Source of the DNA: Rhizobium leguminosarum
Lineage (GTDB): Bacteria > Pseudomonadota > Alphaproteobacteria > Rhizobiales > Rhizobiaceae
Assembly (NCBI RefSeq): GCF_017876795.1
Contig: NZ_JAGIOR010000001.1
Location: forward strand, 2,692,501-2,756,500
Length of the DNA stretch: 64,000 bases
Reading direction: 5' to 3'
A model generated the notes under the pieces. It saw only the letters and a program-made list of their open reading frames with translations, did not search any database and was not told the origin of the DNA. The position numbers were made by a program, and so were the translations under genes. Each line of letters starts with the position of its first letter. Position 1 is the stretch's first letter. Below, piece after piece: positions 2,903-13,890 of this stretch.

Positions 2903-4019
2903 CTTGACCCGAGGGATGCCACAGGAATCCAGTGCGCCAAGTCCTTGGGCACGAAAGACTTTCTCGGTAAGCGATGTGCTAGGCGCAACTTGACGACATC
3001 ACCGCAGGGATTTGATACGCAATACCGTTAACATCAACAGCTCTCGTAGATGGTTACGTTCGCGGCGCTTCACTGGGATGACGAAACGTCAGGAAGAATC
3101 CAGGTTTTGTTGAACAGCGCCTTCTCAGGTCCGTAAAGCCTGAACAGCACTTCGAAGCTCGCCCCCGCCTTCGTGGGTATCCAATTGTTCTCACCGACGG
3201 TTGGGGCGGTAGGCCCGAAGTAGATGTCGACGGAGCCATCGGCATTCGTCTTGATGCCGGGAGTGTTTGATGCCCTGCTGAAGCGGTCGACATCGCGGAT
3301 CAAGGCGTGCGTGACATTGTCATATACCGTTGCCGACCAGTATTGCTTTGCCGGGGCCTTGGCAGGGACGGTCAAGCGGTATGCCTGCGCGCCATCCAGT
3401 GGCTTTCCGTCCTTGTCTCTCATGCTGAACAGATAGAATTGCCCGGCCCCAAGGTGCTTGATGCCGACATAGCCCATCGAATAGGTCAGCGCTCGGGCGT
3501 CTATCGGATAAACGTCGTTCTTGGCAAAATTGTCTGACTGCCCTTCGACAACCTCCGGAGTACCAGGAACGACCCAATGTGCTCCCTCGAAGTAGATCGG
3601 GAATCCGGCCTCACGTTTGTACTCCAGCCAAGCCTTCGCCTCGCGAGCACCGGTAGCAAGGGCGTCGGTGGTCGGCGCGTCAGGCGCAAAGTCCTTGCCC
3701 TTTTCAATGCCGAGCGACTTGAGCATATCGATCATGGCGCGATCCCGCTGTAGCCATGGCTCGGTCTGGACGACGCGGTCGAGCGCTTTAAAATACTCGA
3801 CGCTGTAGGGAATGGTCGCGTCGAATACCGTGTCGATGACGTCCACGAACCTGGTTTCCGGTGGCTTGTGTGCTTCCGACAGCGGATAGAGCTTCACGCG
3901 CTTGCCGTAGGCGACGGCCTTTGCCACATCCTCAGCGCTGCCAGACTTGGGTGTCGAGCGGATGAGAGCAAAACCAGTGTAGGTGTCGGAGCGGAGCGCA
4001 ATGTAATCCTTGGACACTT

Positions 4020-5562
4020 CTTTCGATTACCCACATCCTGCAGACGAGGTTGCATCCGATGAATCGTCTGTGATTCTGTCTGTGACGCCGAATCACGGAG
4101 GCGTCGCAGATGAACGAGGATATGGGAGCTGGCGAAGCGGGCTGGCTTGCCGATGAGATCATTTCATCAGGTCTGCCAGACAAACGCCTGGCGCGCCGGA
4201 TGCACCGACTTCTTGACCAGATGACGTCAGCACCTGGTCACCCTATCCCGGCGGCGTGTGGCGACTGGGCTGCGACGAAAGCGGCCTACCGGTTCTTTGA
4301 CAATCCACGGGTTACAGAGCACGGCGTGCTGGCTGGCCATTTCGCTGCGACCGTCAGGCGCTGCGCAGACAGTGAAGGTCCGATCCTGATCGTGCAGGAC
4401 ACCACAGAGTTCACTTACAGCCGTACGCGGCTGGGCAAGATCGGCTTCACCAAGACCATTAACGCCGGGGCTTATAAGGCAGGGCGATCCTACCCGGTAA
4501 CGTTGTGTGGAATGTTGATGCATTCGAGCCTGGCGTTAACTCTGGAAGGCACGCCGCTTGGGCTGACTGCAGCGAAATTCTGGACGCGTACGAAGTACAA
4601 GGGAACCTGGACGCTCAAGCGCCATATCAATCCCACACGCGTTCCGATCGAGACGAAGGAAAGCTATCGTTGGCTGGAGAACCTGCGCCAGTCAATGGCG
4701 CTGATCGGAACACCGGAACGCTGTGTGCATGTGGCCGACCGCGAGAGCGATATCTACGAACTGTTCTGCCTCGCGCAGGATCTCGGCACGCGCTTTCTGG
4801 TGCGGGTGCAGACCAACCGATTGGCGGCCGAGCCGCCCGGCTGCGAGCCGAAACCGGGATCGCATCGGGTCTTCGCCCAGCTCTCGGCAGAGCCTTGGGT
4901 AGGATGTCATTGTGTCAAGATCGGCCAGCACGAAACCGCGCGCCTGCATGTGAAATTTGCCACCATCGAAACCCTACCGCCCAAAGGCAAGCGGAAGCGC
5001 TACGCACCCCAGCTTCTCACCTACATCCATGCTCTTGAGATCGATCCGCCGGCGGACCGTGCGCCGATCGACTGGAAGCTGGTGACCAATCTGCCTGTCG
5101 AGGATATCACCGCCGCCATCGAGAAACTTGAATGGTACGCCTTGCGCTGGAAAGTCGAGGTCTTTCATAAGGTGATGAAATCCGGCTGCGGCGCCGAAAA
5201 GGCAAGGCTCGAGACCGCAGATCGATTGGCGAAGTTCCTCGCCCTCATTGCGGTGGTCAGTTGGCGGATATTTTTCCTCACCATGTCTGCACGGGAAAAG
5301 CCCGAGGCGGAGCCGGAGACAGTTCTTACCCCGGCTGAAATCGCGACACTCGACAGCATCGATGCAGCGCGCCCTACGCCGCGCATCCTGCGCAGGACCC
5401 TTGCCTCCTATTTGCTACAGATCGCCATGCTCGGTGGCTACCTCGCTCGCAAGCACGATCCTCCTCCCGGCAACATGGTCGTATGGAGAGGGCTGACCCG
5501 CCTCAATGACATCGCATTTGGCATCTCCATCGGAACGCGCCGACAATGTGGGTAATCGAAAG
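4020..5562. mobile_element. IS50/Tn5-like IS4-family element, about 1.54 kb
   Basis: Ends are 17-bp perfect inverted repeats: CTTTCGATTACCCACAT at 4020-4036 and its complement at 5546-5562. A 9-bp direct repeat TGGACACTT lies outside each end (4011-4019 and 5563-5571). Nine-base duplications are typical of the Tn5/IS50 branch of IS4. The element carries one transposase gene whose stop codon lies inside the right repeat. Perfect ends, intact ORF and identical target duplications point to a recent insertion. Confidence 0.9.
4110..5555 (+). CDS. Tn5-like (IS4-family) transposase
   Basis: The product is 481 residues, the same size as Tn5 transposase. It shows the Tn5 layout: an N-terminal DNA-binding region with GDWAATKAAYRFFDN, the first catalytic Asp in VQDTTEF, the second in VADRESDIYE, and the YALRWKVEVFHKVMKSG signature (YREK, catalytic Glu) near residue 350, followed by the helical C-terminal dimerisation region. 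The start has GGAG about ten bases upstream. The ORF ends within the right terminal repeat. It performs cut-and-paste transposition of the element that disrupts the DUF1254 gene. Confidence 0.9.
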   Translation: MNEDMGAGEAGWLADEIISSGLPDKRLARRMHRLLDQMTSAPGHPIPAACGDWAATKAAYRFFDNPRVTEHGVLAGHFAATVRRCADSEGPILIVQDTTEFTYSRTRLGKIGFTKTINAGAYKAGRSYPVTLCGMLMHSSLALTLEGTPLGLTAAKFWTRTKYKGTWTLKRHINPTRVPIETKESYRWLENLRQSMALIGTPERCVHVADRESDIYELFCLAQDLGTRFLVRVQTNRLAAEPPGCEPKPGSHRVFAQLSAEPWVGCHCVKIGQHETARLHVKFATIETLPPKGKRKRYAPQLLTYIHALEIDPPADRAPIDWKLVTNLPVEDITAAIEKLEWYALRWKVEVFHKVMKSGCGAEKARLETADRLAKFLALIAVVSWRIFFLTMSAREKPEAEPETVLTPAEIATLDSIDAARPTPRILRRTLASYLLQIAMLGGYLARKHDPPPGNMVVWRGLTRLNDIAFGISIGTRRQCG

Positions 5563-6202
5563 TGGACACTTTGCCTTGGTAACCAGGAGGCAAAATGAGG
5601 TATTTTCCGCCCTTGCCTTTGTCTGCACCCGAAGGCCCGGCGTCTTCCAGAGCGACCTGCCAGACGTTGTCGATATTGGCGGTTATTGATCCGCCATCGG
5701 CAGGCGGAACCTCCAGCACCATCGGCCCGACTTCCTTCGTGTTGAAGAAGGGGATCAGGTAGACCGTGTCCGGATTGGGTGTCAGCGTCTGGTTCTTCCA
5801 GGATGGAAGGCGCGACCACAAGGCAATCTGATTATCCTGGCCCCCGGCTCTGAGGAAGGCCTGTCGCATCAATTCGGTATTGACGGCGGGCATGCTCCAA
5901 ATCGTCGCCTCGACGGCACGGCGTTCGAGGCTACTCTTGGTGATATCGTCCATGGAAAAGGCAAATTGAGAGCTGCTAAACGCGAGAGCGGCTGCTGTAA
6001 TGCATACAGTCCATCTCATGACTATCTCCGTAGCCCCTAGCGACAATAGGAAACTAATTGCAACCTATATAAATGCAAGGAGCGAGCGGCAACTCACACC
6101 GATCATCACTCCGGTCGCGAGCTATCATCGCATTGGACACGTAGTTCCATGGCAGGTCAGTGCGATTTGGTTTGTTCACGGCGCGGACGCGCCGTGGCTG
6201 GA

Positions 6203-7019: not shown

Positions 7020-7358
7020 TCAAGCCAAACGCAAATCGAGAAGGGGGTGTAACTTTTTTAAGTTGGGCAGGGACTTCGCTTGCCAAGGGTATTGGTGAGT
7101 GCCTTTGACGACGAGCAGCAGGTCGTCCATCTTTCTGGCTTCAATGGTCAACTTGGCCAGGAGATTTATGCCGGAGGAATTGAGGAACTCGAGACCGGTC
7201 AGATTGAAGGTCACTTGTTTGTGCCCGCCGTGGAGCAGGCCAGATATCAGTGAGTAGATGGGCGCATAGGCGTCCGGTCCGGCCAGCCGGAATACCCCAT
7301 CGAAATACACTTCGTTTTGTTCCGCCCATACGCGGAAGTTTTCGTCGCTGATTTCCAT
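7020..7358 (-). CDS. STAS-domain protein, anti-sigma-factor-antagonist type
   Basis: The protein is 112 residues and consists of one STAS-like domain. The segment VTFNLTGLEFLNSSGINLLAKL contains the N-S-S-G-I motif, where the serine in SpoIIAA/RsbV-type proteins is phosphorylated by a partner kinase and dephosphorylated by a PP2C phosphatase. It lies seven bases behind a GHKL-like regulator and just past a PP2C phosphatase, the classical partner-switch trio. It is inferred to be the phosphorylated switch protein of this operon. Its last 14 codons are duplicated at 6247-6297. Confidence 0.75.
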   Translation of the reverse strand: MEISDENFRVWAEQNEVYFDGVFRLAGPDAYAPIYSLISGLLHGGHKQVTFNLTGLEFLNSSGINLLAKLTIEARKMDDLLLVVKGTHQYPWQAKSLPNLKKLHPLLDLRLA

Positions 7359-7365
7359 TCTTCGC

Positions 7366-7926
7366 TCACGGATTGGAGGAGGGCGGCATCGCCACGGCTG
7401 CAGTCGTCGTCAGTATGATACGCTCACCTTCATTCTCTTCGAATGCCCATGCCATTTTTGCGTCGTAATCGCTCAGGAGCGTGAGTAGCCCCAAGCCTGA
7501 ACCGCTTGCTGTCGATATGGCGTTGGTTTCGATTTGCTCAAGAAGAAGTTCTCCTGGGTCCCTCGATTGGAGGCGATGCAATAGTTGCTGAAAGCGAGCG
7601 GATGTCACGCCATCGATCGTGTTCTGCACCCTTATCAAAAACGATCCGTCGAATATGCCGGCTTCAATAAGGATCTCACCAGGCTGTCGAAACTTCACGG
7701 CGTTTTCGATCAGTTCGTTGCTGAGGTATCCGATGTCATGATGCGCCTGCATGTAGCCCTTCCTGGAGCCCGAATACCGCAGAGCCATGACTTCCGCTAT
7801 GAAGTCCGAGGTCATTCCCGAGTGCTTCCATCCAAGCTGAAGGGGGCCATCCGTTAAGGTCAGGCGAGTGCCCGAATCCAGACTTATGCCGGCCAAAGAT
7901 TCGACGCCGTATACCGTTGGCCTCAT
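7366..7926 (-). CDS. GHKL-like regulator (RsbW/SiaB-like kinase candidate)
   Basis: The product is 186 residues. It has an N-box (YLSNELIENAVKF, about residue 68) and, further on, a glycine motif SGSGLGLLTLLSDY resembling the G2 box of GHKL ATPases, followed by a strand-rich end. This suits a small serine kinase or anti-sigma-like protein that phosphorylates a STAS partner, as RsbW or SiaB do. The lid region between the boxes is short, so ATP binding is plausible but not certain. It is three bases downstream of the phosphatase and seven bases upstream of the STAS gene, so the three are almost surely co-translated. No membrane segment is present. Confidence 0.65.
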   Translation of the reverse strand: MRPTVYGVESLAGISLDSGTRLTLTDGPLQLGWKHSGMTSDFIAEVMALRYSGSRKGYMQAHHDIGYLSNELIENAVKFRQPGEILIEAGIFDGSFLIRVQNTIDGVTSARFQQLLHRLQSRDPGELLLEQIETNAISTASGSGLGLLTLLSDYDAKMAWAFEENEGERIILTTTAAVAMPPSSNP

Positions 7927-7929
7927 CTC

Positions 7930-10287
7930 TCACCTGTGCCGCACTGCGAGCAGCGTGATGTCGTCGTAAATCTTCTGCGATCCGATAAAGTGCATGAGTG
8001 TCGCGACAATTTCGGCAACGATTTTCTCGGCGCTCAGATCCTTCAAGCGAACTGCTTCGCGGCACAGGCGTTCCATGCCAAACAGTTCTCCGGCATCATT
8101 TTCGGCTTCGGTTACGCCGTCCGTATGCAGGAGGATGAAGTCGCCTTTTTCGAACGCTATTTCACGGGTTTTGATGAAGGCGGAGATATCGGCTTCCAGC
8201 CCGATCGGAATACCCAGATCCATGGTGTCTATACGCTCGACCTCGCCGTTCGCCCGCACGACGACAACTTCCTCGTGTTGTCCCGACAGGATCATCTCTT
8301 TTCCGTCGTAGTCAAGAAACGCCAGCGTGAGGTGCTTATCGATTTTCGTCCTGACTATATTTTTAAACAAGGCGCTGTTCAGGTTGGTGAGAAATTCAAC
8401 TGCATCGGTGTTTCCGGCTTCCTGCAGGGCGCGGGCGACGGACTGAACCATCAACATCAACACGCCGCTTTCCAGCCCGTGTCCGGTAACGTCGCCGATG
8501 CCGATCTTCAACCGCCCTCCGTTCTTCAATACGTCGTAATAATCGCCGCCGACTTCTTCCGCCGGTCTCATATAGGCTGCGATCTCCAGGGCCTGAAACT
8601 CCTCAAGCTCCTGATCCAGCGGAAGCACCATGAGCTGCATCCTCTCGGCGACGGCGAGCTCCGTTCCAAGACGTCGATTTTCTCGCTGAAGTTGTGCGTT
8701 CAGCGTCGAAATCTCTTCCTTTGCATCTTCGATTTGCGCGGTTCGCTCTTCGACGAGTTGCTCGAGATTTTCCGTGTGATAGCTGATCTCTTCGGCCATC
8801 CGATTGAATGCTTCGCCGGCTTCGCCGACCTCATCCTTGCTTCGTATGGCCACCCTGACCGAATAATCCTTCGCTTGGATCCGCTTGGCGGCACCTGCAA
8901 GCGCGCTGATTCCGCTGGTTATTCGTTTCGAGGCCGCAAATACCGCGATCGTCACAATCAGCAGTGACATCAAGATCGCCAGAATTTGGTAGAGCACGAT
9001 CCGGTTCGTCGCGTCGGAAATTTTGGCCTGGGCGGCATAGAGCGAGGCATCGATTTCTCGCTCCGGCACAACCACTCCCAGCGACATCGCCTCCTGCCGA
9101 ACCGGGCCACTGGACCAGAGATTGGTGGCAGGCAGTTTCTTGACGATAACGATATAGGGGATCTCGTTGCCGTCCTGCTGCAACAGCAGATGTTGGATGC
9201 CCTGTTCGCGGTCCAGGGCCAGTTTGGCGATCGCGGGCTGGGAGCTTCCCTTCAGAGAGCGCTCCAGGCCGGTCACGCCGGTTCCGCTCGCACCGCTGGC
9301 GGCACGCAGGCCGAGGGTTTTTTCGCCCGTGCTGTTGATCGCGACGACATTGCCGTCGGACATTGCCAGAAACCCAAAGCCGGATTGCGCCACTTTGACA
9401 TTTTCAACCGTCTGCGCCAGCTGGTCGAGTGTGATATCGGCGCCGGCCGTCCCGGCGACATCCTTTCTGTCGACTGTCCATAGCGGATGAAAGAAACTGA
9501 CGATCAGCTTTCCGGTGATGGCATCCGTATAGGGCGCTGTCTGGGTGATATCATCAGCGACCGGCCGCGTCTTCATATCCTTGGCCCAGCCCTGCCAGGA
9601 CTCGTAAAGTCCCGGGAAAAAGAAGTCCCAGAAATTCGCCTCGTTGTGGCCCGGATAAAGCCGGTCGAAGGTCTGGGCCTGATCGGTATAGGGCGCCGTT
9701 CGGAAGATCGGCCGTTCTTTCGAGCCGATATAATACATCTGCAGCTTCGAGGCACCGTGCCGCAGCAGGCTCGGCGCAACAAGATCCAGAACCGCGCTCG
9801 TGCGGATATCATTCTCGACGTCGGGTCTTGGCTTCTGGTCTTGTCCGAGCAAGTAACCCCAGACGCTCACCACCGAGAGCGAGCCGGGAGCGTTCTGGGA
9901 CCACTTGCCCTGCTGATCGTAGGAAAGGCTGACGCTGGGGGGAGATGTGCGGGCGATGGCAGCGCCGACGTCCGAATTGCGCGCGGGATCGTCGATCTGC
10001 GCCTGGAGCACGCCTGCGAGCGTACTGACGTCGCTATGAACCTGCCGCAGCAGCAAACTCACCTGTGCCGCGGTCGAGTCAGCATAGGTGCGGATGTATT
10101 CCTGGCTTGCCGCTTCAAGACCCTGGCCGACCTCGAGGGTTGCGTCACGCGACAGCCTTTGAACGTTCCAAAGCGCCAGCCCGCCGCTGACCAGCAAGTC
10201 GAAGAGCACAGCTCCGCCGACGACCAGGATGAATTTTGCCCGAAAGCCTATTCCTGCCGGTGTCTTCGGTGATCTCACGTCCATCAC
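7930..10287 (-). CDS. Membrane sensor phosphatase: Cache-HAMP-coiled coil-SpoIIE (PP2C)
   Basis: The protein has 785 residues. A transmembrane helix at about 15-40 is followed by a large periplasmic region of roughly 370 residues that resembles a double Cache sensor, with VSVWGYLLGQDQKPRPDV and FFHPLW. A second membrane helix lies at about 430-450, then a HAMP domain, a coiled coil (about 510-560) and a SpoIIE-type PP2C domain. Metal-binding signatures are all present: GGDYYDV, GDVTGHG, HTDGVTEAE and YDDITLL. It should dephosphorylate a Ser/Thr-phosphorylated STAS protein in response to an extracellular ligand. SiaA of Pseudomonas has a comparable architecture. The start overlaps the previous gene by four bases. 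Confidence 0.85.
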   Translation of the reverse strand: MMDVRSPKTPAGIGFRAKFILVVGGAVLFDLLVSGGLALWNVQRLSRDATLEVGQGLEAASQEYIRTYADSTAAQVSLLLRQVHSDVSTLAGVLQAQIDDPARNSDVGAAIARTSPPSVSLSYDQQGKWSQNAPGSLSVVSVWGYLLGQDQKPRPDVENDIRTSAVLDLVAPSLLRHGASKLQMYYIGSKERPIFRTAPYTDQAQTFDRLYPGHNEANFWDFFFPGLYESWQGWAKDMKTRPVADDITQTAPYTDAITGKLIVSFFHPLWTVDRKDVAGTAGADITLDQLAQTVENVKVAQSGFGFLAMSDGNVVAINSTGEKTLGLRAASGASGTGVTGLERSLKGSSQPAIAKLALDREQGIQHLLLQQDGNEIPYIVIVKKLPATNLWSSGPVRQEAMSLGVVVPEREIDASLYAAQAKISDATNRIVLYQILAILMSLLIVTIAVFAASKRITSGISALAGAAKRIQAKDYSVRVAIRSKDEVGEAGEAFNRMAEEISYHTENLEQLVEERTAQIEDAKEEISTLNAQLQRENRRLGTELAVAERMQLMVLPLDQELEEFQALEIAAYMRPAEEVGGDYYDVLKNGGRLKIGIGDVTGHGLESGVLMLMVQSVARALQEAGNTDAVEFLTNLNSALFKNIVRTKIDKHLTLAFLDYDGKEMILSGQHEEVVVVRANGEVERIDTMDLGIPIGLEADISAFIKTREIAFEKGDFILLHTDGVTEAENDAGELFGMERLCREAVRLKDLSAEKIVAEIVATLMHFIGSQKIYDDITLLAVRHR

Positions 10288-11456
10288 AGTGGCTTTCGTC
10301 CGGAAGCCGCCCAGATCGGCCAGCCTGCATAACCTTTGGGGTGAAGGGCGGCAAAGACGTGATCCTTGAACCCTTGCCGGAACCTGCGGATAAAATCCAA
10401 GGAGTCGCCACGCCGAACCGCCATCTCACCGGCGTAGACATTTTCCCAGGCTTCGATGATGTCGGCGAAGTCCTGAGGGTCCCCGTCAAGGTTCGTCACC
10501 ATAAAGCAATCGACCTTGATTGTGTCGAACCCGGCATCGGCAAGGAGATGGCGGCTTTTCGGCCCCATCTCGACATCCATGTCGAAGTGCTTGAACAGTT
10601 TGGCGACCTCCTCGTAAGTCCATTTTATCGTTTCCGCGTGCGGCTCGCCCAGGCAATGCGAATTTTTTTCGTTGGTGATGTAGACACGGCCGCCGGGCTT
10701 GCAGATGCGGTAAAGTTCCCGCAGCAGCATCTCGGGACGGTTGAAAATCTGCAGCGAATGCCGGCAGGTCACAAAGTCGAACTGATTGTCCCGAAGCAGC
10801 ATCTGGGAAGCGTCCCCATAGGTGTACTCTATCCCCTGCAGATCGAAGTCGGCAGCGACCTTGCGAGCATATTCGAGGCTGCGCACGGAATGATCCAGCG
10901 CGACAAGCCGCGCGGGTTTGAATTCCCGTTGAACCAAGGCGGCGAAATCACCAATTCCGCAACAGATATCCGCCATGACAAGGCCGCTGCGCAGACCGTG
11001 GTGAGGCAGGAGTTCCCGCTCGTGCCTCCATGTCATTTTCGTCTGGGTGCGGAGAATGGGAATGAAACTCTCATCCTCGACAAAGCTCTGGCCTGGGTAA
11101 AATGACGAATCGTAGACTTCGACCGACAGGTTTGGTTGTGATGCCGCCAACGTTTGGAACAACGAGGTCGACCACGCCACCACGCTGGACGTGATGATGA
11201 CAATCTTCCGTTCCGGCCTGGTCCGGCAGCTCGCCGTCAGTATATCGGACAGAGCTGAAAAGGCGGTCATGTTGATGTGCGTCAGCCGTTTGACGTTCAG
11301 GTAAACCACGCCGCTGTACCTTTCCAAACTTTGCCGCACCAGCTTGAGGGCATCGGCAATCTCGCTTGCACTTTCCGGCCGCATCTTGCCAGACAGCAAC
11401 AGCTCCTGATTTGTCGGATCAAAACGGACGGTGAAGGGTAGGACAAGCAGGTTCAT
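10284..11456 (-). CDS. STAS domain fused to a SAM-dependent methyltransferase
   Basis: The protein has 390 residues in two parts. Residues 1-115 look like a STAS domain (SGKMRPESASEIADAL, YLNVKRLTHINMTAFSAL), with Thr where the phosphorylatable Ser usually lies. Residues 150-390 form a class I methyltransferase with motif I ADICCGIGDFA, an acidic residue after strand beta-2 (VALDHS), GDASQMLLRDNQFDFVTCRHSLQ, and ELYRICKPGGRVY. A free STAS next to a PP2C phosphatase suggests that phosphorylation of the STAS part controls methylation of an unknown substrate. It overlaps its neighbours by four bases on both sides. The fusion itself is the most unusual feature of the operon. Confidence 0.8.
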   Translation of the reverse strand: MNLLVLPFTVRFDPTNQELLLSGKMRPESASEIADALKLVRQSLERYSGVVYLNVKRLTHINMTAFSALSDILTASCRTRPERKIVIITSSVVAWSTSLFQTLAASQPNLSVEVYDSSFYPGQSFVEDESFIPILRTQTKMTWRHERELLPHHGLRSGLVMADICCGIGDFAALVQREFKPARLVALDHSVRSLEYARKVAADFDLQGIEYTYGDASQMLLRDNQFDFVTCRHSLQIFNRPEMLLRELYRICKPGGRVYITNEKNSHCLGEPHAETIKWTYEEVAKLFKHFDMDVEMGPKSRHLLADAGFDTIKVDCFMVTNLDGDPQDFADIIEAWENVYAGEMAVRRGDSLDFIRRFRQGFKDHVFAALHPKGYAGWPIWAASGRKPL

Positions 11457-12016
11457 TGGAAGTCCTCGGCCGAAGGGAAATCCGCGATGATCTGGATCCC
11501 GCGGGTGCCGTCTTTCTCAATTCGGATAGCGGCGCGGAATATTGTTGCCAGATCTCGGAGCAAAATCGTCCCGTCGGCGTCCGTGACCATATCGGAGCCG
11601 GCGTCCGCGACAGGATGGCGTTCACTTGATCTTGCACCCGTGTGCTCGCGGCCAAATGCTTCCTCGCGGGCAAACGCAATTTTCAGCCGGTTGATCGTCG
11701 TGCTCCGATAGAGACGGAAACTTATCCTTCCCGGCTCACCCGTCGAACGGAAAGCAAGTTCGATGAGCTCATTGGCCGCGACGGAAAGAAAATTCGAATA
11801 TCGCGCGGGATCGCTGTGGCCTTGGCCGAGAATGTCTGAGAGATATTCGGTAATCCTGTCGCAAAACTTCCACTGAGATTTGAACATCGCAACGTTCAGT
11901 TCCAGCGATACCATCGGCGCCAATGCACGGTCATCGAAGCTTGATGCTTCCTCTTCCAATACAGCCTCCATCAGTTTGCCTGGAGCCTCGGGTTGATGCA
12001 TGCCCGCTAAAAACAC
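11453..12016 (-). CDS. Degenerate GHKL-like protein, first partner-switch component
   Basis: The product is 187 residues from a GTG at 12016; ATG codons at 12001 and 11971 are alternatives and none has a strong ribosome site. The middle, SNFLSVAANELIELAFRS followed by GRISFRLYRS, parallels the N-box region of the regulator at 7366-7926. The later glycine boxes are not recognisable and a charged linker (REHTGARSSERHP) occupies that place. It may be a non-catalytic relative that binds the STAS-methyltransferase encoded just downstream with a four-base overlap. It is cytoplasmic. Confidence 0.55.
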   Translation of the reverse strand: MFLAGMHQPEAPGKLMEAVLEEEASSFDDRALAPMVSLELNVAMFKSQWKFCDRITEYLSDILGQGHSDPARYSNFLSVAANELIELAFRSTGEPGRISFRLYRSTTINRLKIAFAREEAFGREHTGARSSERHPVADAGSDMVTDADGTILLRDLATIFRAAIRIEKDGTRGIQIIADFPSAEDFQ

Positions 12017-12036
12017 GGCGAAAAATCGGTTGCCTG

Positions 12037-13689
12037 CTATGGCAGCGCGTGGCTTACGGATGTTTCCACCCGGGTAATGAACTCACTGATCGCCTCGACC
12101 GGAAGCGGCCTGCTCACCAGATAGCCTTGAAGCCTGTCGCAGCCGACACGGTGCAACCATTCCGCCTGACCTGGCGTCTCGACGCCTTCGGCCGTCACCT
12201 GCATGTCGAGACCATGTGCGAGGTTCACGATGCAGCGGACGATCGTCTGGCTTTTCGGATCGCTTTCCAGATCGGTGATAAAGTATTTGTCGATTTTGAT
12301 CGTGTCGAAAGGGAAGGTCTTCAGATAGCTCAGGGAAGAATATTCGGTCCCGAAATCATCCAGCGAGATCCGTATCCCCAGCACGTTGAGCGTGTTCAGC
12401 GTGTCGATATTGTTGACGGTCCGCTCAAGCAGGACGCTTTCAGTTATCTCAAGCTCCAAACGCTCGGGCGAGAATCCGATCAGGTCGAGCGTCTGGGATA
12501 TCCGGTCAGTGAGGCCGCTGGTCAGGAATTCAGCCGCCGACACATTGACTGCAACGACGTAGTTCTCCGGCCAATTCATCGCCTCGCGGCATGCCTGCTC
12601 CAAAACCCATGCACCTATATCAGGCATCATTCCATCGGCCTCGGCCATCGGAATGAATGCCGCCGGTGGAATTTTTCCAAGCAGCGGATGGTGCCATCTC
12701 AGCAATGCTTCGAAGCCGACAACGCAGCCGCCCTCGGCGATGGGTTGATATTCGACAAAGAATTGCTGTTGGATCAAGGCCATGCGCAGGCTGCGGCGCA
12801 GCAGTTCGCGTTGTTCCAGCGACTCAAGCATTGAGGCATCAAACGCGGCTGCTCGACCGCGCCCCTCTTTCTTCGCGGCGTAGAGTGCAACGTCGGACGC
12901 CTTCATAAGCTGTTCCGGACTGGTTCCATCCGGCGGAGCTGTGGATATGCCGATGCTGGTGCCGACAAAGACCGCGATGCCATCGATCGTGAAGGGTTTT
13001 TTGAATGCGGCAACCAAGACTTCTGCTAGCCGGTGCGCTTTGGCCGGCTGTCCCGAGCCCGTGGAAATGACGGTGAATTCGTCACCAGCCAGTCGATAGG
13101 CTCTGTCATCACCCGTCAGGCAGTCTTGAATACGTTTTGCCGCAAATTGGAGAAGCTTGTCGCCCGCCGGATGCCCAAGCGTGTCGTTCACCGGCTTGAA
13201 ATCGTCAAGGTCGAGCTGCATCAGGGATAGAGTCTCGTTCGAGCCTGCGGTCTCCCGCAGCAATTCAGTGAGGTCCTCGCTGAATTGGCGTCGGTTCGGC
13301 AGTCCCGTCAGCGGATCGTGGGTCGCCAGATGCAAAAGCGTTGCGCGCTCGTCGTCGGCGAGCTCCTCCGACCGGACCACGGCAAACAGAACGCCGATCC
13401 GATAGATCGTCAGCCCGTGCGACCCAGACCCGCCAAGATCGCCCGATACCCGCAAAGGCTTGCCGCTGTCATCCAATGAGCGGAAAGCAAGCGTAATCGC
13501 CGATTTGTCCAGCTCTGGAAAATGCTCCCAAAGTGACGCTGCCGGTTTGACAGATGCCGGCAGCTCATTGCCCAGCAAATTCTCGACGGGATTGAAATCG
13601 CGGTCAAAGAACAAAAGCCGGTCGATTGAACTCGAAGCTTCTGGCTGTGTTTGTCCGAGGGCCGGGCTGGCCGCACGAATTTTCCGCAT
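12037..13689 (-). CDS. PAS-like GGDEF-EAL c-di-GMP turnover protein
   Basis: The protein has 550 residues. The ATG at 13689 is preferred over a TTG at 13695 because GAGAGG lies at proper distance. Residues 20-110 look PAS-like. The GGDEF domain follows (LMQLDLDDFKPVNDTLGH, then RLAGDEF in place of GGDEF, a variant that can still be active). The EAL domain is complete: FEALLRWHHP, VNVSA, LELEITES, DDFGT, IKID, AEGVET and QGYLVSRP. It should be a competent phosphodiesterase, possibly with cyclase activity. It is the first gene of the signalling operon, 20 bases before the next. No transmembrane segment is present, so any signal is intracellular. Confidence 0.85.
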   Translation of the reverse strand: MRKIRAASPALGQTQPEASSSIDRLLFFDRDFNPVENLLGNELPASVKPAASLWEHFPELDKSAITLAFRSLDDSGKPLRVSGDLGGSGSHGLTIYRIGVLFAVVRSEELADDERATLLHLATHDPLTGLPNRRQFSEDLTELLRETAGSNETLSLMQLDLDDFKPVNDTLGHPAGDKLLQFAAKRIQDCLTGDDRAYRLAGDEFTVISTGSGQPAKAHRLAEVLVAAFKKPFTIDGIAVFVGTSIGISTAPPDGTSPEQLMKASDVALYAAKKEGRGRAAAFDASMLESLEQRELLRRSLRMALIQQQFFVEYQPIAEGGCVVGFEALLRWHHPLLGKIPPAAFIPMAEADGMMPDIGAWVLEQACREAMNWPENYVVAVNVSAAEFLTSGLTDRISQTLDLIGFSPERLELEITESVLLERTVNNIDTLNTLNVLGIRISLDDFGTEYSSLSYLKTFPFDTIKIDKYFITDLESDPKSQTIVRCIVNLAHGLDMQVTAEGVETPGQAEWLHRVGCDRLQGYLVSRPLPVEAISEFITRVETSVSHALP

Positions 13690-13890
13690 CTCCAAGCCTC
13701 TCCCAGTCGAATGTCCTTAACCAGATATCGTAGCAAATTAACTGTCTCACAACTTGTGCACGTCAAGATTTACATTAGGCATATCTGATTCACAATCCCA
13801 AACCTTCGCCAACACGCTTACCGTGTGAGTTCACACTACACTGATCTAGCAGGTGGATTTCCATGATTGGAATGCCGATATATGGGGGAT

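What the first reader, a model, noticed from the sequence alone, without database searches (positions are those of the whole stretch)
7020..13689. Compact partner-switching operon combining c-di-GMP turnover, PP2C phosphatase, two GHKL-like proteins and two STAS proteins
Seen: six same-strand genes with overlaps of 4 bp or gaps of 3-20 bp. Known: PP2C phosphatase, GHKL kinase and STAS protein form partner switches (SpoIIAA/AB/E, RsbU/V/W), and SiaABCD in Pseudomonas couples one to a diguanylate cyclase. Inferred: here the switch has two kinase-like and two STAS-like parts and ends in a GGDEF-EAL and a methyltransferase, a combination I do not know as described. It could be a two-level switch in which an external signal sensed by the Cache domain sets both c-di-GMP level and a methylation event.
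Basis: partly seen in the sequence, partly recalled or inferred. Interest (0 to 1): 0.78.

Follow-up and report, generated by a model that had tools for sequence, protein, structure and literature searches.

The report
Doubled signalling switch fused to methyltransferase
A conserved gene cluster of nitrogen-fixing soil bacteria carries two related on/off protein switches, one apparently working and one whose kinase looks dead and whose switch protein is fused to a methyl-transferring enzyme, next to an enzyme that may make or break the signal molecule c-di-GMP.

Summary
The six-gene minus-strand operon (7020-13695, Rhizobium) is real. It holds two paralogous GHKL-STAS pairs. Pair 1 (7366-7926, 7020-7358) passes the NCBIfam slr1658/slr1659 cut-offs and keeps the expected motifs (kinase Asn and NSSG each 110 of 110 rows). 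Pair 2 is degenerate: its GHKL protein (11453-11959, start corrected) has an RsbW/SpoIIAB-type predicted fold but the ATP-site Asn in 0 of 112 rows, and its STAS domain is fused to a class I SAM methyltransferase. In 108 of 112 examined loci the core (GHKL2, STAS-methyltransferase, Cache-like PP2C, GHKL1, STAS1) is complete; the other 4 are cut by contig ends. The GGDEF-EAL gene is optional: 90 loci have it, 18 instead carry a divergent soluble PP2C, none has both, 4 show neither (one at a contig end). Most likely mechanism (inferred): a SiaABC-like phospho-switch acting on a second, phosphorylation-independent switch that sets methyltransferase and perhaps c-di-GMP output. My searches of the held papers found no description. 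New variant of a known kind; substrate, signal and contacts are untested.

The parts
12037..13695 (-). GGDEF-EAL protein, first gene (TTG start; in-frame ATG at 13689). GGDEF about 12856-13326, EAL about 12106-12795. Optional sixth part of the locus
   Evidence: Pfam GGDEF 7.3e-45, EAL 7.7e-71; motif AGDEF 91 of 91 rows, EAL motif 90 of 91, catalytic K, E, E, Q columns 91 of 91; present in 90 of 112 loci
11453..11959 (-).
11747..11773 (-). GHKL2 N-box: NELIELAFR where GHKL1 has NELIENAVK; the Asn position (11756-11758) is Leu
   Evidence: L/M/V/I/F/T in 112 of 112 rows, never Asn
10284..11456 (-). STAS-methyltransferase fusion, 390 aa
   Evidence: Methyltransf_11 8e-19; N-terminal part matches NF047705 (slr1659 superfamily) E 7.4e-10; profile match to STAS1 E 5.4e-9
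11112..11435 (-). STAS domain of the fusion; the SpoIIAA-like position (Thr64) lies at 11265-11267
   Evidence: model shows STAS-like strand/helix order over residues 8-115; T in 86 of 91 GGDEF-EAL-type rows, V/I/L in 21 of 21 others with letters
10947..10970 (-). SAM-binding motif I DICCGIGD
   Evidence: invariant in A1 (16 sequences); invariant or 90% and more in A3 (36 sequences)
7930..10287 (-). Membrane sensor phosphatase: Cache-like domain, HAMP, coiled coil, SpoIIE-type PP2C (catalytic domain about 7936-8520)
   Evidence: SpoIIE 1.9e-38, HAMP 1.1e-11, dCache_1 1.8e-6 below cut-off; the five Asp positions checked are Asp in 110 of 110 rows that have letters there
7366..7926 (-). GHKL1: slr1658-superfamily kinase-like protein with intact N-box (Asn75 at 7702-7704) and G2 box SGLGL
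   Evidence: NF047703 163.7 bits against cut-off 100; Asn 110 of 110, SGLG[LI] 109 of 110 rows
7020..7358 (-). STAS1: slr1659-superfamily STAS protein; NSSG site, Ser61-Ser62 at 7173-7178
   Evidence: NF047705 121.3 bits against cut-off 100; NSSG 110 of 110 rows

Best explanation
This is a duplicated partner switch in which one copy has become the output device. Shown by sequence: two paralogous GHKL-STAS pairs lie in the same order on either side of a membrane HAMP-PP2C phosphatase; pair 1 keeps kinase and phospho-site motifs; pair 2 has a GHKL protein without the catalytic Asn and a STAS domain fused to a SAM methyltransferase. Inferred: GHKL1 phosphorylates STAS1 at NSSG; an outside ligand makes the phosphatase remove that phosphate; unphosphorylated STAS1 changes partners, as SiaC does. 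GHKL2 no longer phosphorylates and serves as a docking partner of the methyltransferase's STAS domain, so that methyl transfer is switched by protein contact, through competition among STAS1, GHKL1 and GHKL2. In the GGDEF-EAL lineage the same switch may also reach c-di-GMP turnover. Methyl acceptor, direction of control and signal are unknown.
Against: No contact or activity was measured. Thr is kept at the fused STAS position in 86 of 91 GGDEF-EAL-type rows, so it could be phosphorylated there, perhaps by GHKL1. Some outlying GHKL2 rows keep a G2-like remnant (GIGL, IGLL), so nucleotide binding is possible. The fold-search rows shown for the fusion are methyltransferases, so its STAS domain rests on profile matches and the model's strand/helix order. 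Distance covariation is ambiguous: GHKL2 goes best with the fused STAS (0.29; 0.36), but the fused STAS goes at least as well with GHKL1 (0.34; 0.38), the pair expected to be coupled, GHKL1-STAS1, is weak (0.15; 0.18), the two halves of the fusion do not covary (-0.05; -0.16), and in the 15 other-type rows GHKL2 went best with STAS1. GHKL2's nearest folds are anti-sigma factors, so a sigma factor could be its partner.
Confidence: 0.45

Rival explanations
1. SiaABCD-like circuit: the true output is the GGDEF-EAL protein, bound or activated by STAS1; the GHKL2/STAS-methyltransferase pair is a side branch.
For: SiaC-SiaD precedent (PMC8457831, title and abstract start seen in the listing only); a GGDEF gene lies next to slr1658-like, slr1659-like and PP2C genes in L150; GGDEF-EAL motifs are conserved.
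Against: 18 loci have a second PP2C instead of GGDEF-EAL and 3 have neither although their upstream region was held; their core is complete except at contig ends, so GGDEF-EAL is dispensable. (That the methyltransferase is always there cannot be claimed, since loci were collected by it.)
Confidence: 0.2
2. Two independent working phospho-switches: GHKL2 phosphorylates Thr64 of the fused STAS domain and a PP2C removes the phosphate.
For: Thr at the position in 86 of 91 GGDEF-EAL-type rows; a second PP2C with all five Asp positions checked conserved (18 of 18) stands beside this pair in 18 loci.
Against: GHKL2 lacks the ATP-site Asn in 112 of 112 rows; where the second PP2C exists the position is Val, Ile or Leu in 18 of 18 rows, the reverse of what this model predicts.
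Confidence: 0.1
3. Feedback loop: the methyltransferase makes or alters a small molecule or lipid that the phosphatase's Cache-like domain senses.
For: The methyltransferase domain and the phosphatase sensor half show the strongest pairwise distance covariation in both sets after controls (0.60; 0.64); solved relatives include phosphoethanolamine and natural-product methyltransferases.
Against: Both parts evolve slowly and shared rate effects may remain; no ligand is known; class I methyltransferase folds do not predict substrates.
Confidence: 0.1
4. GHKL2 is an anti-sigma factor and the locus controls transcription through a sigma factor encoded elsewhere.
For: Best fold matches are UsfX, SpoIIAB and RsbW entries.
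Against: No sigma-factor family among the matches of the six operon proteins or of eight neighbouring ORFs (the rest of the genome was not searched for one); the fused enzyme offers a nearer output; any RsbW-type protein would match by fold.
Confidence: 0.1

Closest known systems
SiaABCD of Pseudomonas aeruginosa
   Different: Two GHKL and two STAS parts, one GHKL inactive-looking, one STAS fused to a methyltransferase, and a GGDEF-EAL instead of a GGDEF-only cyclase; no protein passes a Sia cut-off
NCBIfam slr1658/slr1659 superfamilies (Synechocystis Slr1658, iron-limitation recovery)
   Same: GHKL1 and STAS1 pass the superfamily cut-offs
   Different: The cyanobacterial gene is known to me only through a mutant phenotype, called a putative two-component gene (PMC7555055 passages; the 2018 source paper was not seen)
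SpoIIAA/AB/E and RsbU/V/W partner switches
   Different: No sigma factor gene seen; duplicated pair; enzyme-fused STAS
UbiE/MenG-like class I methyltransferases
   Same: TIGR01934 E 2.2e-17 over the core
   Different: 63.1 bits against a cut-off of 158.35; STAS domain in front, long conserved C-terminal part; substrate unknown

Membership tests
SiaABCD system | Family scores of SiaA, SiaB, SiaC, SiaD | tested here: not met
   phosphatase 113 of 700 bits (SiaA), GHKL1 21.5 of 85 (SiaB), GGDEF-EAL 101.7 of 290 (SiaD); fused STAS 13.2 of 24.5 on Pfam SiaC
Partner switch (PP2C, GHKL kinase, STAS protein) | All three parts in one operon with catalytic and phospho-site residues | tested here: met
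   Phosphatase, GHKL1, STAS1: Asp residues, Asn and NSSG each 110 of 110; core complete in 108 of 112 loci
Partner switch (PP2C, GHKL kinase, STAS protein) | Reversible phosphorylation and exchange of partners | not testable with these tools
   needs purified proteins
Second working partner switch (GHKL2 with the fused STAS) | N-box Asn of the GHKL ATP site | tested here: not met
   0 of 112 rows
GHKL fold (GHKL2) | RsbW/SpoIIAB-like fold | tested here: met
slr1658 superfamily (NF047703), GHKL1 | Score over cut-off 100 bits | tested here: met
   163.7 bits
slr1658 superfamily (NF047703), GHKL2 | Score over cut-off 100 bits | tested here: not met
   19.3 bits in the window, 28.9 to 44.5 in five relatives: a distant paralogue, not filed as a member
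slr1659 superfamily (NF047705), STAS1 | Score over cut-off 100 bits | tested here: met
   121.3 bits
slr1659 superfamily (NF047705), fused STAS | Score over cut-off 100 bits | tested here: not met
   39.1 bits
STAS domain on the methyltransferase | STAS fold | tested here: inconclusive
   profile match to STAS1 E 5.4e-9 and STAS-like strand/helix order, but the rows shown by the whole-model fold searches are methyltransferases; the domain was not modelled alone
UbiE/MenG methyltransferase | TIGR01934 cut-off | tested here: not met
   63.1 of 158.35 bits
dCache_1 sensor | Pfam gathering score | tested here: not met
   28.1 of 45 bits; a Cache-like fold remains likely but unproved

The most novel reading that the evidence does not exclude
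A partner switch whose output is a methyl transfer reaction: a GHKL pseudokinase that has lost catalysis holds or releases a STAS-tethered methyltransferase, a phosphorylation-free slave switch set by the neighbouring phospho-switch; and between two lineages the slave switch's own PP2C and a GGDEF-EAL enzyme were exchanged once, tying methylation to c-di-GMP in one of them.
Probability: 0.3. Interest if true: 0.75.

Novelty: new variant of a known kind. Interest (0 to 1): 0.52.

Why it matters
Partner switches are known to steer sigma factors and, in SiaABCD and HsbA/HsbD, diguanylate cyclases (HsbA/HsbD recalled). A conserved locus in which the STAS part is fused to a methyltransferase and its GHKL partner has lost its kinase site would extend the outputs to methylation and show how a kinase turns into a docking partner. 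It occurs in many legume symbionts, including Sinorhizobium meliloti 1021 pSymB, a genetically tractable laboratory strain. The single exchange of a phosphatase and a c-di-GMP enzyme gives a natural experiment on wiring.

Tried and rejected
Rejected: (1) GHKL2 as a wrong ORF or unrelated small protein: found in 111 of 112 loci, the one miss being at a contig end; fold confirmed. (2) GHKL2 start at 12016: the upstream frame carries stops in some relatives. (3) The second PP2C moved elsewhere in GGDEF-EAL genomes: at E 1e-30 it is found in 0 of 15 GGDEF-EAL-type and 0 of 3 neither-type genomes, and in 8 of 8 PP2C-B-type ones (the type of two of the 15, G234 and G329, was checked afterwards on short loci). 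(4) Thr64 and GGDEF-EAL as repeated co-gain: GGDEF-EAL is one side of one branch (SH-aLRT 99) and Thr changes at least 5 times on the 71-row tree, so the association has essentially one deep event behind it. That tree used 71 of 113 rows (close relatives thinned; L139 and L140, pieces of one genome, dropped), quick method, no bootstrap, with long end branches for L135, L136 and L182.

Led nowhere: promoter and terminator scans gave no more than shuffles (3 against 3.4; 7 against 7.5). Distance covariation was ambiguous. Of the three 'neither' loci with held upstream DNA (L174, L175, L178), L174 and L178 were scanned: peptidase, transporter, HTH-PBP, NMO and AMP-binding matches, nothing recognisable as a switch part. 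Paper searches for the operon, for the slr1658/slr1659 and Sia family names, for S. meliloti gene names that I recalled for this stretch, and for STAS plus methyltransferase or SpoIIE found no paper that describes it (judged from listings and a few passages); subscription papers are mostly not held. The EAL lysine was first read at the wrong column and corrected. In a STAS review the words methyltransferase, fused, SiaC and GGDEF do not occur (PMC8256260, find only).
Full report
What is there. The window lies on contig C1 (5.09 Mb) of a 7.58 Mb genome in 9 contigs; the best protein matches are named Rhizobium. In transcription order they are a GGDEF-EAL protein, a GHKL-like protein (GHKL2), a STAS-methyltransferase fusion, a membrane PP2C with a Cache-like domain and HAMP, a GHKL protein (GHKL1) and a STAS protein (STAS1). 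Genes overlap by 4 bp or are a few bases apart, except that GHKL2 most likely starts at 11959, which leaves 77 bp before it.

Two paralogous pairs. GHKL1 and STAS1 pass the cut-offs of the NCBIfam slr1658 and slr1659 superfamilies (163.7 and 121.3 bits against 100). GHKL2 and the STAS part of the fusion match the same two families weakly (E 5.9e-4 and 7.4e-10 in the window; GHKL2 of five relatives 1.1e-11 to 6.5e-7). Profile comparison gives GHKL2-GHKL1 E 1e-8 and fused STAS-STAS1 E 5.4e-9, against 0.031 and 0.12 for the crossed pairs. Each GHKL gene stands directly before its STAS gene, as expected from a duplicated GHKL-STAS unit.

Conservation of the locus. One scan of genome contigs confirmed 277 relatives of the fusion; the best 80 were returned with flanks. 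I added 32 loci from genome searches: 13 of the 22 genomes with a match (one of them in two pieces), G075, two of the seven, nine of the 15 and the six new ones of the seven. In 108 of these 112 loci GHKL2, fusion, PP2C, GHKL1 and STAS1 are all present on one strand; the remaining four (L092, L134, L139, L140) are cut by contig ends. Since loci were collected by the fusion gene, this shows that the fusion was not seen without the rest, not the reverse. Frequency: 22 of 199 genomes drawn from the family, 2 of 190 from the class, 15 of 347 from the order (with a different query), 7 of 28 in another order; these samples overlap. GHKL2 relatives occur in 117 of 148 genomes of the genus at E 1e-5, about half of them only about 27-47% identical and, beyond the loci above, not checked for neighbours. 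The fusion is encoded in 120 plasmid records, among them S. meliloti 1021 pSymB.

An exchanged gene. Upstream of GHKL2, 90 loci have GGDEF-EAL on the same strand, 18 have a divergent gene for a soluble coiled-coil SpoIIE phosphatase (PP2C-B), none has both and 4 show neither (one of these, L139, at a contig end). The five Asp positions checked in PP2C-B are Asp in 18 of 18 rows. PP2C-B is absent genome-wide at E 1e-30 in 15 of 15 tested GGDEF-EAL-type genomes and 3 of 3 neither-type ones, and present in 8 of 8 tested PP2C-B-type genomes. On the tree of 71 fusion proteins GGDEF-EAL is one side of one branch (SH-aLRT 99). The tree is not rooted by an outgroup, so direction is inferred: a locus with two phosphatases, two GHKL and two STAS parts looks like the older, symmetrical state, with one later replacement.

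How it may work. The simplest reading is a SiaABC-like cycle (sensor PP2C, GHKL1, STAS1) whose unphosphorylated STAS1 competes for partners with the STAS domain on the methyltransferase, GHKL2 acting as a docking protein without catalysis. The catalytic part of the fusion is the most conserved part of the locus (82% mean identity to the window) and GHKL2 the least (39%). Covariation of distances, after cubic control for the other parts (76 rows; 61 GGDEF-type rows), pairs GHKL2 best with the fused STAS (0.29; 0.36), the fused STAS with both GHKL proteins, STAS1 best with the PP2C domain (0.26; 0.44), and most strongly the methyltransferase domain with the PP2C sensor half (0.60; 0.64). Against the method: GHKL1-STAS1, a pair that should be coupled, gives only 0.15 and 0.18, the two halves of the fusion give -0.05 and -0.16, and in the 15 other-type rows with linear control GHKL2 went best with STAS1. 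I treat all this as a lead only.

GGDEF-EAL. The GGDEF motif reads AGDEF in 91 of 91 rows; the EAL motif is intact in 90 of 91 and the other catalytic columns checked in 91 of 91. Whether it makes or degrades c-di-GMP is open. A paper on S. fredii reports a protein there that is a cyclase with a silent EAL domain (PMC8546604, passages); I could not tell whether any protein of that paper is this one.

Comparison with what is known. The parts and the logic are those of partner switches, with SiaABCD closest, but no Sia cut-off is met. In L150, from another Pseudomonadota family, a GGDEF gene, slr1658-like and slr1659-like genes, a periplasmic-binding-type ORF and a PP2C gene stand together, with no match to the fusion in the 16 kb held, so a Sia-like core occurs alone. 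The duplicated pair with a dead-looking GHKL and a STAS-methyltransferase is not described in any paper that my searches brought up.

Noticed in passing
window 3070-6046: A transposase gene (4110-5555, plus strand; Tnp_DNA_bind, DDE_Tnp_1 and Tn5-dimerisation matches) lies between a DUF1254 piece (5438-6046) and a DUF1214 piece (3070-4017) on the minus strand; these domains usually sit in one protein (recalled), so the insertion probably split that gene.
   Followed up: partly
L141 5492-5998; L189 6471-6989: Public annotation calls the GHKL2 gene 'ubiquinone biosynthesis methyltransferase UbiE', a name that its sequence does not support, perhaps taken from its neighbour.
   Followed up: yes
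L131 12500-13897: A further SpoIIE phosphatase with a cyclic-nucleotide-binding domain lies beside PP2C-B.
   Followed up: no
L150 4488-9353: Compact cluster of GGDEF, slr1658-like, slr1659-like, periplasmic-binding-type ORF and PP2C in another Pseudomonadota family: a simpler relative of this locus with a possible binding-protein sensor.
   Followed up: partly
window 10284-11456 and 7930-10287: Methyltransferase domain and phosphatase sensor half covary in distance more than any other pair (0.60 and 0.64 after controls); may be a rate effect or a hint of a shared ligand.
   Followed up: partly
L141 1-650 and 1859-2818; L189 2165-4426: In Rhizobium sp. CCGE531 curli-type genes and an HD-GYP gene lie just upstream of the operon; in S. 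meliloti RCAM1750 sugar-acid genes do, so flanks differ between these two.
   Followed up: no
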